DNA from: Syntrophomonas sp. DTU018 | GTDB lineage: Bacteria; Bacillota; Syntrophomonadia; Syntrophomonadales; Syntrophomonadaceae | Length of the DNA stretch: 64,000 nt | Reading direction: 5' to 3' | Assembly: GCA_001513155.1 (NCBI GenBank) | Contig: LFSR01000002.1 | Span: forward strand, 1-64,000 | In this document: positions 1-63,159 of the stretch, piece after piece | Position numbering within the stretch: the stretch's first letter is position 1 | How the letters are laid out: each line of letters opens with the position of its first letter | Position numbers and translations under genes: made by a program | Notes under the pieces: generated by a model | Database searches by the model: none | Told to the model about the DNA's origin: nothing | What the model saw: the letters and a program-made list of their open reading frames with translations, nothing else

Positions 1-963
1 GAAGCAGGGTGGGATGACATCTGGATCAACCACCTGCCTACTAACCATGTGGGCGGCGCCACCGAGATAGGAGCGACGGCTATTATTGCTAATTCCACTC
101 AGGTTTTGGAACCTTTCAACCCGGCCAAGACATTGGAATTAATTGAAAAACATAAAATAACCATCCTGGGCCAGGTACCCACCATGTATGCCATGGAATT
201 TGCCCTGCCGGATTTCGATAAATATGATTTTTCATCTCTGCGGACATTAGTGATCAGCGGGTCAGCCGCTCCTATGGAAACCCTGCGCAAGATGAAGGAA
301 ACCATGTGCGATAACGTCTATAACTGTTTAGGACTGACGGAAGTGTCCGGGTTGATCACCTATACGGAAAAGGGCGCCAGCCTGGAAACCCTGCACCTGA
401 CCGTAGGCAAAGTGGCGCCCGAGTTTGAAATGAAGATAGTAGATGAAAACCGTCAGGTAGTACCACCCGGGCAGATCGGCGAGATTGCTTACCGGGGCAC
501 TTCGGTTATTAAGGAATACTTTAAGCTTCCGGAAATCACGGCAGCTTCCTTCGATGATGAAGGCTGGTTTTATTCCGGGGATATGGGCTTCATAGACGAA
601 GACGGCAACTTGCGTATGGTGGGACGTTCCAAAGATATGTACATTACCAACGGAGAAAACATTTATCCTGCCGAAGTTGAGGACGCCATCATGCGCTATC
701 CGGGAGTATTGCTGTGTGCGGTAGTAGGTGTGCCCCATGAGATAGCCGGTCATATAGGGCGAGCCTATATTGTCCCCATACCCGGCCACCAGATTGATAT
801 TGAAGACCTGAAAGAATTCCTGAAGGAGTACCTGGCTACTTACAAGATCCCCAGGGAGTATGTGTTCAGAGAATCCTTGCCCATGACCCTGCTGGGAAAA
901 ATCGAAAAGAAGCTGCTGCGCCAGGAGATTGAAGAAGAGCTGAAGCAAAAGGGTCAGGCTTGA
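1..963 (+). CDS. Acyl-CoA synthetase (AMP-forming), C-terminal part, cut by the window edge
   Basis: The frame is open from base 1, so only the last ~320 residues of a class I adenylate-forming enzyme are visible. Such enzymes activate a carboxylic acid to acyl-AMP and then acyl-CoA. Visible landmarks in order are GLTEVSG (A5-like), GWFYSGD (A7, Asp for ribose binding), GRSKDMYITNGENIYP (A8 hinge) and a C-terminal LLGKIEKK with the probable catalytic Lys at bases 898-900. A GTG at 49 lies inside the conserved domain (preceded in frame by INHLPTNH) and is not the start. The neighbouring SDR gene suggests fatty or aromatic acid catabolism. The acid substrate cannot be read from this fragment. 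Confidence 0.9.
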   Translation, partial: EAGWDDIWINHLPTNHVGGATEIGATAIIANSTQVLEPFNPAKTLELIEKHKITILGQVPTMYAMEFALPDFDKYDFSSLRTLVISGSAAPMETLRKMKETMCDNVYNCLGLTEVSGLITYTEKGASLETLHLTVGKVAPEFEMKIVDENRQVVPPGQIGEIAYRGTSVIKEYFKLPEITAASFDDEGWFYSGDMGFIDEDGNLRMVGRSKDMYITNGENIYPAEVEDAIMRYPGVLLCAVVGVPHEIAGHIGRAYIVPIPGHQIDIEDLKEFLKEYLATYKIPREYVFRESLPMTLLGKIEKKLLRQEIEEELKQKGQA

Positions 964-1773: not shown

Positions 1774-1926
1774 GGAGAGTGTCAAAAAATTAGCTAAAAG
1801 AGATCGCCACGTCGCTTCGCTCCTCGCGATGACACATCAAAAGGCCATCTTATGTGTCATTGCGAGCCCCGGAGGGGCGTGGCAATCTCGAACGTCTAAC
1901 CGCTAAAAGACTTCTTTGATAGGCTG
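1774..1926 (-). repeat. R1 element, full 153-bp copy (REPIN/MITE-like)
   Basis: This copy begins GGAGAGTGTCAAAAAATTAG and ends GTCTAACCGCTAAAAGAC...CTG. It is an almost exact reverse complement of 42191-42343 and has the same length, 153 bp. Inside are two inverted half-units (core TGTCATYGCGAG...GTGGCRATCTC), each itself an imperfect palindrome. The 1738-2075 gap contains only this element, its flanking hairpins and the upstream region of the next gene. The second flanking hairpin, CTGAAAGGCTCC/GGGGGCTTTTCAG, occupies 1924-1953. Confidence 0.85.
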
Positions 1927-11447: not shown

Positions 11448-11621
11448 TTATTTATCCTCCAGTTCCTGCCAGTCATCCTCCTTAGCTTTTCGGAAACTTT
11501 TAATAGCCTTGCCCATAGACTCAGCTAGCTGGGGAAGTTTGCCGGGACCAAAAATTATTAAAACAATTACCAGAATAAAGACTAATTCCCAGGGACCGAA
11601 ATTACCTATCAAGCCAAACAT
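11448..11621 (-). CDS. tatA: Twin-arginine translocase subunit TatA (first of two)
   Basis: A short gene encoding 57 residues, with an ATG behind GGAGGCAGG. It has one amino-terminal helix (about 10-24), then the [20 protein letters not shown] hinge and amphipathic helix that define TatA/E, and an acidic tail ending ELEDK. TatA oligomers form the passage for folded proteins with RR signals, working with TatC, which is not in this window. The first 41 residues are nearly identical to the second tatA at 22676. It lies just upstream of the lactate-permease-like gene, though no Tat substrate is adjacent. Confidence 0.93.
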
Positions 11622-11851
11622 ATAACCTGCCTCCTTAATGGCCTGTGCCCGTTAATAAGAATGATCGATCTTTTTGCTCCTTCTTTGCAACAATAACGTC
11701 GATTGATTATATAATACCAGATTCGTTCCCAGAAGACATTATATTTAACAGTTAAGCCCGGATCAGCTTTAAATTGACTTCTATTGCTACAATGGTATGG
11801 GGCTACGGCAAATTGCTCATACTGCAAAAAAAACAGTGATAGGAGGATTCA

Positions 11852-16157: not shown

Positions 16158-16192
16158 GAATAATCAGAATACTGCCCATAAAGCTGCTGTAT

Positions 16193-16573
16193 TGTCATTG
16201 TTGTGAAAATGACTTTCACGTCAGTAAAAAGGCAACCATTGTGTCATCGCGAGCGCGTAGCGCGTGGCGATCTCAATCGTTAAGACAGATAGACGAATGA
16301 GATTGCCGCGCCCCTTTCAGGGGCTCGCAATGACACATAAGAGGACCTTTCATTCATCGTGGCCTGTGCTTCAGGTGATAATTGCGAGCGGAGCGAAGCA
16401 ATCTCAAACGAGGTACGCAGATTGCGAAAAAGAGATCGCCACGTCGCTTCTCTCCTCGCGATGACACGAAGAGAGCTCTTTTCACAGCAATGACACTTAA
16501 GAGGGCTTTTCATTTATCGGGTGTGTTCTAAAGGTGAAAATTGCGAGCTTCCTAAGGAACTCGCAATTTCTAT
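16193..16573. repeat. R1-family repeat array (several half-units)
   Basis: The 16158-16702 gap is filled with tandem and inverted half-units of the R1 family: at least five copies of a TGTCATYGCGAG / GYGGCRATCTC-type palindrome. Bases 16193-16390 are nearly identical (about 9 differences by eye) to the reverse complement of 62832-63020. No terminal CAGACTGTCAAAG end is visible here, so this copy is either partial or a different assembly of the same units. Confidence 0.8.
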
Positions 16574-22675: not shown

Positions 22676-22855
22676 TTAAGCATTTTTATCTTCCGGCAAT
22701 TGGGGATCATCCTGCTGGGCTTTCCTGAATCCTTTAATGGCTTTGCCCATAGATTCAGCCAACTGGGGCAGTTTGCCCGGTCCAAAAATGATTAATACAA
22801 TAACCAGTATGAGAACCAGTTCCCAGGGGCCAAAATTTCCGATTAAGCCAAACAT
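22676..22855 (-). CDS. tatA: Twin-arginine translocase subunit TatA (second copy)
   Basis: A short gene encoding 59 residues with an ATG behind GAGGGAGG. Apart from two or three changes, residues 1-40 equal those of the TatA at 11448 ([14 protein letters not shown]...[18 protein letters not shown]). The tails differ ([13 protein letters not shown] here). It stands at the end of a cytochrome-maturation cluster and near a Tat-exported flavoprotein (25873), which makes a dedicated export role plausible. No tatC is present in the window. Confidence 0.93.
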
Positions 22856-22902
22856 ATAATTCCTCCCTCTGCTTTAATTTGCTATCATAAAGCACCGCTC
22901 TA

Positions 22903-34780: not shown

Positions 34781-35010
34781 GCAGGAGCGTTAGCCAGGAG
34801 GCAGTAGTATTAGCCAGGCGAATGACTTACGACAAGCCGTGGCAACCCACGGCGCAACTGAGGGCTGCGAAGGGGAGCGAGAATCAGGATGTTTCGAGCA
34901 GCGAGTACTGAGTGCATGGATGCCGAATTACGAGCGGTCCCCTTCGCACTTAAAGTTTGCCGATGTGTTGCAGGCGAGGAGTACCGGAGCGAGCCGACTA
35001 ATACTCCTGC
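34781..35010. repeat. R2 element, long copy
   Basis: This fills most of the 34781-35093 gap. The left end is GCAGGAGCGTTAGCC and the right end is GACTAATACTCCTGC, inverted relative to each other. The interior 34800-34880 matches, in reverse complement, 42949-43017 (CGCTCCCCTTCGCAGCCCTC). Bases 34968-35010 match the short copy at 16600-16652. It contains no open frame with family resemblance. Confidence 0.75.
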
Positions 35011-42064: not shown

Positions 42065-42156
42065 TTGCAGGAAATTGTTTAAATAAAGAACGGCAAAAAG
42101 ATTGAAGATCTCATCTTTGATCCGGATGGATACGATGAATTCACCCCAGAAAAGAC

Positions 42157-42190
42157 AACTCCCCGGAGGAGATAATCTTCCGGGGAGTTT
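42157..42190 (+). terminator. Terminator hairpin, left copy of a 34-bp direct repeat
   Basis: AACTCCCCGGA / TCCGGGGAGTT stem. The same 34 bases recur exactly at 42344-42377. This left copy has no T tract because R1 begins on the next base. Confidence 0.85.
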
Positions 42191-42343
42191 CAGACTGTCA
42201 AAGAAGTCTTTTAGCGGTTAGACATTCGAGATTGCCACGCCCCTCCGGGGCTCGCAATGACACATAAGATGGCCTTTTGGTATGTCATCGCGAGGAGCGT
42301 AGCGACGTGGCGATCTCTTTTAGCTAATTTTTTGACACTCTCC
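42191..42343 (+). repeat. R1 element, full 153-bp copy flanked by 34-bp direct repeats
   Basis: Begins CAGACTGTCAAAGAAGTC and ends TTTTTTGACACTCTCC. The interior half-units GAGATTGCCACGCCCC...CAATGACA and TGTCATCGCGAG...GTGGCGATCTC are inverted to one another, so the RNA or single strand can fold into one long hairpin. It is the inverted near-copy of 1774-1926. Both ends touch a perfect 34-bp duplicate of the terminator hairpin, exactly as expected for an inserted element with target duplication. Confidence 0.9.
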
Positions 42344-42381
42344 AACTCCCCGGAGGAGATAATCTTCCGGGGAGTTTTTTT
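42344..42381 (+). terminator. Terminator hairpin, right copy, with its T tract
   Basis: The same AACTCCCCGGA / TCCGGGGAGTT stem as at 42157, followed by seven T. Without the inserted element this would be the ordinary terminator of the NusG-II-like gene and its convergent neighbour. Confidence 0.9.
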
Positions 42382-42835: not shown

Positions 42836-42936
42836 TTCCAGCCCCCCTTTGTTCCATTTTAATCTCATTTTACTCTTTTTTTAGAAATAAACCCACAACA
42901 ATTGGCAAATGAGTGCAAAGGGCAAATTTACTGTCT

Positions 42937-43017
42937 CCCGCTCCCCTTCGCAGCCCTCAGTTTCACCGTGGGTTGCAACGGCTCGTCGTAAGTCCCTCGC
43001 CCTGCTAATACTCCTGC
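42937..43017 (-). repeat. R2 element, partial copy
   Basis: Reverse-complement match to part of 34781-34880, ending at the R2 terminus GCTAATACTCCTGC. The rest of the 42836-43231 gap contains only degenerate R1-like scraps (GAGATCGCCACG near 43106). Confidence 0.7.
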
Positions 43018-62765: not shown

Positions 62766-63159
62766 CAGACTGTCAAAGAAGTCTTTTAGCGGTTAGACGT
62801 TCGAGATTGCCACGCCCCTCCGGGGCTCGCAATTATCACCTGAAGCACAGGCCACGATGAATGAAAAGTCCTCTTATGTGTCATTGCGAGCCCCTGAAAG
62901 GGGCGCGGCAATCTCATTCGTCTATCTGTCTCCCCGATTAAGATCGCCACGCGCTATGCGCTCGCGATGACACAATGGTTGCCTTTTTACTGACATGAAA
63001 GCCATTTTCACAGCAATGACAATCAAGAATTCCTTTCATAGCGATGACAGGCTTAAGTTTTCGTTTATCGTGGCCTGTTCTACTGGTGACAATTGCGAGA
63101 CACGAAGTGCCGTGGCAATCTCAAAAGCAAAACCACTAATAGACTTTTCTGACGCTCTG
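62766..63159. repeat. R1 composite element (394 bp)
   Basis: The left end, CAGACTGTCAAAGAAGTC through the first half-unit, equals the start of the full element at 42191. From about 62832 it switches to a near-identical inverted copy of 16193-16390. The right end AGACTTTTCTGACGCTCTG is an inverted version of the left end. So it is a mosaic with inverted termini around two additional palindromic units. It occupies most of the 62706-63213 gap. Confidence 0.8.

What the first reader, a model, noticed from the sequence alone, without database searches (positions are those of the whole stretch)
42157..42381. A 153-bp palindromic element inserted exactly at a terminator, flanked by perfect 34-bp direct repeats of that terminator
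Bases 42157-42190 and 42344-42377 are identical and each holds the whole terminator hairpin. The 153 bp between them (42191-42343) equals, inverted, the copy at 1774-1926. No spare bases lie between element and repeats. This is the picture of a transposition event with an unusually long target duplication, or of a repeat that moves by copying a terminator. No transposase is nearby, so it would be a non-autonomous MITE/REPIN moved in trans.
Basis: seen in the sequence. Interest (0 to 1): 0.78.

Follow-up and report, generated by a model that had tools for sequence, protein, structure and literature searches.

The report
Mobile element that duplicates terminators
A short DNA element without genes has inserted into dozens of this bacterium's transcription terminators, each time leaving a full copy of that terminator on both sides; its ends match those of IS1182-family insertion sequences that leave the same mark, so it is very probably moved by such a transposase.

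Summary
The window element is 152 bp (42191-42342), bracketed by a perfect 35-bp direct repeat (42156-42190, 42343-42377) that is a whole terminator hairpin. It is one of a family. In this genome 48 of 56 end-paired copies are flanked by direct duplications (13-35 bp) of hairpins that differ from site to site; mismatched left/right flanks do not match. Sister species have the orthologous sites empty, with one terminator copy, including the window's own site. The ends (SAGASTGTCRAARAA) occur 84 times here against 0 for the reversed pattern, and are shared with full-length IS1182-family insertion sequences (DDE transposase), which duplicate hairpins in the same way. The element is therefore an IS1182-type MITE that uses the hairpin as target and as ruler. 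No RAYT and no IS1182 transposase is in this assembly, so the partner is lost or unassembled; a same-family genome carries one. Staphylococcal IS1272, the studied IS1182 member, also targets hairpins but deletes them; whole-hairpin duplication was only drawn as a hypothetical pathway in the one model paper found. New variant of a known kind.

The parts
42156..42190 (.). left copy of the 35-bp target duplication; whole terminator hairpin (AACTCCCCGGAGGAGATAATCTTCCGGGGAGTT core)
42191..42342 (+). IS1182-type MITE, 152 bp, no ORF of note
42191..42205 (+). left terminal inverted repeat CAGACTGTCAAAGAA
   Evidence: matches TIRs of full-length IS in L143-L145
42328..42342 (-). right terminal inverted repeat GAGAGTGTCAAAAAA (read inward)
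42228..42262 (.). interior REP-like palindrome 1 (GAGATTGCCACG...CGCAATGACA)
   Evidence: sequence; fold z = -4.1 for the whole element
42284..42317 (.). interior REP-like palindrome 2 (GTCATCGCGAGG...GGCGATCTC); found alone, 84-91% identical, in other genera of the family
42343..42377 (.). right copy of the target duplication; keeps the run of T and so the complete + strand terminator
1775..1926 (-). second copy of the MITE (96% identical); flanking hairpins differ (1752-1771 and 1930-1946), an exception
62766..63159 (+). long (394 bp) member of the same family with extra REP-like palindromes; flanked by related but diverged hairpins
16190..16570 (.). related cluster of REP-like palindromes (95% inverted match to 62825-63023) without recognisable terminal repeats

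Best explanation
A family of miniature inverted-repeat transposable elements moved in trans by an IS1182-family DDE transposase. The transposase chooses intrinsic terminators by their hairpin shape, not by sequence. It joins the element's two 3' ends to the two feet of the hairpin, so the staggered gap spans the whole stem-loop; host fill-in then makes a complete terminator hairpin on each side. One copy keeps the original T-run, so insertion probably leaves termination working. Shown here: copies, ends, hairpin-exact duplication, empty sites, and autonomous IS1182 elements with the same ends and the same duplication. Inferred: mobilisation in trans, cleavage at the feet of an extruded hairpin, and preserved termination.
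For: 47 matches of the element in the genome. 48 of 56 end-paired copies have direct duplications of a self-complementary hairpin, 13-35 bp long with the site's own stem; 41 of 48 have an A- or T-run beside it. Matched flanks: median alignment score 41; mismatched flanks: median 10, 99.9th percentile 24. Empty sites: 19 orthologous loci in G001-G003, for 9 of the 17 sites queried, with both flanks aligned and no terminal repeat, for example L190 against L017 with one exact copy of the 26-bp hairpin; the window's own site has one terminator in G001 and G002 (L193, L183). Full-length IS with the same ends and a hairpin duplication: L143-L145 (three copies), L142; L116-L118 with close ends and exact hairpin repeats. 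Their proteins pass the NCBIfam IS1182 cut-off (L142, L143, L118: 386-463 bits against 270). A genome of the window's own family (G005) has four copies of the end CAGACTGTCGAAAAA, each beside its own hairpin; three of them run into an IS1182 transposase N-terminus 52-59% identical to those.
Against: No IS1182 transposase is found in this assembly, so mobilisation in trans is not shown for this genome. Eight end-paired copies lack a clear duplication; some have a different hairpin on each side. L142 has its two hairpin copies with the loop reversed. No transposition was observed.
Confidence: 0.92

Rival explanations
1. REPIN moved by a RAYT (Y1/HUH) transposase.
For: The interior holds a pair of REP-like palindromes in inverted orientation, and one of them occurs alone in other genera.
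Against: No Y1_Tnp match in the genome, while the same search rings in 5 of 14 control genomes. Defined terminal inverted repeats shared with DDE insertion sequences and long target duplications do not fit HUH transposition (established knowledge of IS200/IS605 and RAYT).
Confidence: 0.03
2. The unit is 'terminator-element-terminator': the terminator is part of the mobile element and is copied with it.
For: At the single window site this looks the same as a target duplication.
Against: Every site has its own hairpin sequence, and the single hairpin at empty orthologous sites is that of the site.
Confidence: 0.01
3. Insertion by the same family but through a different route to the duplication: deletion or replacement of one hairpin as in IS1272, followed by gene conversion or template switching that restores it.
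For: IS1272, of the same IS1182 family, removes the stem-loop (PMC5678879, PMC4923244). Some copies have mismatched hairpins, and L142 has a reversed loop.
Against: 48 copies with two hairpins, many of them perfect, and exact agreement with the empty sites are explained more simply by a staggered cut at the feet.
Confidence: 0.04

Closest known systems
IS1272 (IS1182 family, Staphylococcus): stem-loop-replacing transposition (PMC5678879; PMC4923244)
   Same: Same transposase family (IS1272 is assigned to IS1182 in both papers), DDE chemistry, target is a hairpin (often a terminator) recognised by shape, no sequence consensus.
   Different: IS1272 deletes or replaces the hairpin and leaves no duplication. 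Here the whole hairpin is duplicated, the outcome that Wan et al. 2017 drew only as hypothetical 'pathway b'.
MITEPye1 of Paracoccus yeei (IS1182-type MITE, 159 bp; PMC11578231)
   Same: Non-autonomous, about 150 bp, terminal repeats like an IS1182-family element, intergenic.
   Different: 4-bp duplications and 1-3 copies; here 13-35-bp hairpin-exact duplications and about 50 copies.
ISMac2-derived MITEs of Methanosarcina acetivorans (IS1182; PMC3852290)
   Same: 160-169 bp IS1182-type MITEs in 7-14 copies.
   Different: Reported duplications of 4 or 0 bp.
REPIN/RAYT systems (PMC3116915)
   Same: Interior palindromes resemble paired REPs; extragenic location.
   Different: No RAYT in the genome; terminal repeats and target duplications present.

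Membership tests
MITE of the IS1182 family | short, without a transposase gene, bounded by terminal inverted repeats | tested here: met
   152 bp; SAGASTGTCRAARAA at both ends
MITE of the IS1182 family | terminal repeats match those of full-length IS1182-family elements | tested here: met
   L142 and L143-L145 carry matches to the same 15-mer pattern and encode proteins over the NCBIfam IS1182 cut-off
MITE of the IS1182 family | same kind of target duplication as the autonomous elements | tested here: met
   whole-hairpin repeats at L116-L118 and L142-L145
MITE of the IS1182 family | a partner transposase in the same genome (usual, though orphan MITEs exist) | tested here: not met
   none in G000, a 59-contig assembly where multi-copy IS can be lost; present in same-family G005 and, decayed, in G019
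MITE of the IS1182 family | demonstrated mobilisation in trans | not testable with these tools
   needs an experiment
REPIN moved by RAYT | Y1 (REP-associated tyrosine) transposase in the genome | tested here: not met
   PF01797: no match in G000
REPIN moved by RAYT | no target duplication on insertion | tested here: not met
   duplications at 48 copies

The most novel reading that the evidence does not exclude
A branch of IS1182-family transposases measures its target by structure: the stagger of its two cuts equals the span of the target hairpin, so the duplication is always one whole terminator, whatever its length. It is the duplicating counterpart of IS1272's hairpin-deleting transposition and lets the element spread through terminators without destroying them.
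Probability: 0.7. Interest if true: 0.7.

Novelty: new variant of a known kind. Interest (0 to 1): 0.62.

Why it matters
DDE transposases usually make a duplication of fixed length. Here the length follows the secondary structure of the target, which gives a large natural dataset for a pathway that the literature found here only drew as a possibility. It turns 'does the transposase read an extruded hairpin?' into a direct test. It also shows a way to insert at the ends of genes while leaving a complete terminator, which would explain how about 50 copies are tolerated in a 2.6-Mb genome.

Tried and rejected
REPIN/RAYT: no Y1 transposase. Rfam on the window: nothing. A search for the autonomous element behind unpaired ends in the own genome: only more MITEs or ordinary genes. 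PF13751 and the L143 transposase in the own genome: none. The second window copy (1775-1926) was tested as a recombinant: its hairpin occurs nowhere else in the genome and the gene pair beside it is not syntenic in relatives, so recombination, misassembly and decay cannot be told apart. A text search for the interior palindromes found no relevant paper. One viral-contig scan with a window gene was uninformative.

Full report
OBSERVATION. The window holds CAACTCCCCGGAGGAGATAATCTTCCGGGGAGTTT at 42156-42190 and again at 42343-42377, a perfect 35-bp direct repeat that is one whole terminator hairpin. Between them lies 152 bp (42191-42342). The copy at 1774-1926 is inverted and 96% identical.

A FAMILY IN THE GENOME. 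The genome (G000, 2.56 Mb, 59 contigs) has 47 BLAST matches to the element. Reading the flanks of 31 showed that nearly all are bracketed by direct repeats of a hairpin, with a different sequence at each site. The two ends share SAGASTGTCRAARAA, which occurs 84 times in G000 and never for the reversed control pattern; 49 times in the sister species G001, rarely in G002 and G003, and not in six other genomes of the family. The extra ends revealed shorter and longer members (about 110 to 394 bp) and sub-families with other end variants.

STATISTICS. Pairing ends 90-420 bp apart gave 59 pairs; three share an end with a better pair and are set aside. Of the remaining 56, 48 have a local match between left and right flank above the 99.9th percentile of mismatched pairs (matched median 41, mismatched median 10, 99.9th percentile 24). 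In the reconstructed single-copy sites the repeat is a hairpin, 13-35 bp long (median 24.5), with feet within a few bases of the repeat limits in most cases, the difference being mainly A:T pairs of the flanking A- and T-runs. 41 of 48 have at least five A before or five T after within 8 bases. The sites are thus intrinsic terminators by sequence. In G001 and G002, 10 of 14 bounded copies have the same kind of repeat.

EMPTY SITES. 140-bp flanks of 17 insertion sites were searched in G001, G002 and G003. For nine sites, 19 orthologous loci had both flanks aligned and no terminal repeat; 18 show the junction, one (L195) is masked by N. In G001, L190 shows exactly one copy of the 26-bp hairpin AGCGGGTGCCATTTCTGACACCCGCT that is doubled around the element at L017. 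The window's own terminator is present once, without the element, in G001 (AACTCCCCGGATAATCTCCGGGGAGTT) and G002, beside the orthologous downstream gene; the gene upstream differs. One insertion (L031/L110) is shared by G000 and G001 with 86% identical flanks, so some insertions are old; other copies are identical to each other, so some are recent.

THE PARTNER. No Y1 (RAYT) transposase and no PF13751 transposase was found in G000. PF13751 proteins of the phylum were fetched. Three of them (L116-L118) lie in elements with ends CAGACTGTAGACAAA, CAGACTGTCGACAAA or close variants, flanked by exact 21-24-bp hairpin repeats. The pattern SAGASTGTCRAARAA in 398 genomes of the phylum led to L142 (G129, ends about 1.5 kb apart, 512-codon frame) and L143-L145 (G259, three copies, 477-codon frame). 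Their ends match the same pattern as the MITE ends, and they are flanked by whole-hairpin repeats that differ between copies. L142, L143 and L118 score 386-463 bits for NCBIfam IS1182 (cut-off 270). In the window's own family, G005 has four copies of the end CAGACTGTCGAAAAA at contig edges, each beside a different hairpin; three of them run into an IS1182 transposase N-terminus 52-59% identical to those of L142 and L143. G019 has a decayed copy whose transposase is 57% identical to L143, with the end CAGAGTGTCAAAGAA beside a hairpin. G000 itself has none that the searches detect; partner loss or failure to assemble a multi-copy IS are both possible.

MECHANISM. Inference: the transposase binds a target hairpin, probably extruded or single-stranded, and joins the element's 3' ends at the two feet. 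The gap then equals the stem-loop, and fill-in yields two complete hairpins. This explains duplications whose length varies with the stem and which abut the element. Wan et al. 2017 (PMC5678879) drew exactly this as pathway b, while reporting that IS1272 removes the stem-loop; Furi et al. 2016 (PMC4923244) describe deletion of part of the hairpin with no duplication. The IS1182 family was already said to include members that target palindromes (Siguier 2015, as cited in both). From memory, not tested, reference tables give IS1182 duplications of up to about 60 bp, so single cases may be known.

CONSEQUENCE. At the window site the right copy keeps the T-run and is still recognised as a + strand terminator; on the minus strand only short stems at 42159-42172 were flagged. 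Preserved termination is likely but was not measured.

EXCEPTIONS. Eight pairs lack a clear duplication. The second window copy (1775-1926) has two unrelated hairpins. In G001, L055 joins two different hairpins, one of which is the left flank of another copy (L104): this fits recombination or misassembly between copies. L142 has its two hairpin copies with the loop reversed.

DISTRIBUTION AND NAME. CAGACTGTCAAAGAAGTCTNTTA over 84,980 species genomes hit only two: a Bacillota MAG (USOA134_maxbin.047) and Syntrophomonas sp. UBA9860 (the window's own record may be left out). The element is therefore specific to a narrow group related to Syntrophomonas.

VERDICT. A real, well-supported IS1182-type MITE family that spreads through terminators by duplicating them: a new variant of a known kind.

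Noticed in passing
L102 (G001) 338-421, minus strand; L104 and L107: In the sister species, copies of the element are interrupted; one carries an Rfam group II intron domain match (44.7 bits, cut-off 40), so group II introns seem to insert into these MITEs.
   Followed up: partly
L005 (G000) and L178/L103 (G001): The orthologous terminator is occupied by different sub-families in the two species, which suggests repeated targeting of one terminator.
   Followed up: partly
L055 and L104 (G001): One terminator hairpin appears beside two different element copies, as expected from recombination or misassembly between copies.
   Followed up: partly
L125 (G003, same genus) 1349-2972: An IS1182-family element with ends CAGACTGTGTGAGAA/CAGACTGTGTGAAAA sits inside a hairpin without duplicating it, more like IS1272.
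   Followed up: no
L142 (G129) flanks: The two hairpin copies are identical in the stem but the loop is reversed (GA against TC).
   Followed up: no
window 42284-42317 and loci in G008, G013, G026, G028, G031, G034: The interior palindrome occurs in other genera of the family where the MITE ends were not found, so the MITE seems to have captured an independent REP-like repeat.
   Followed up: partly
window 11451-11625 and 22685-22859; 34801-34894 and 42924-43017: Further repeats in the window (78% direct, 84% inverted), with no Rfam match.
   Followed up: no
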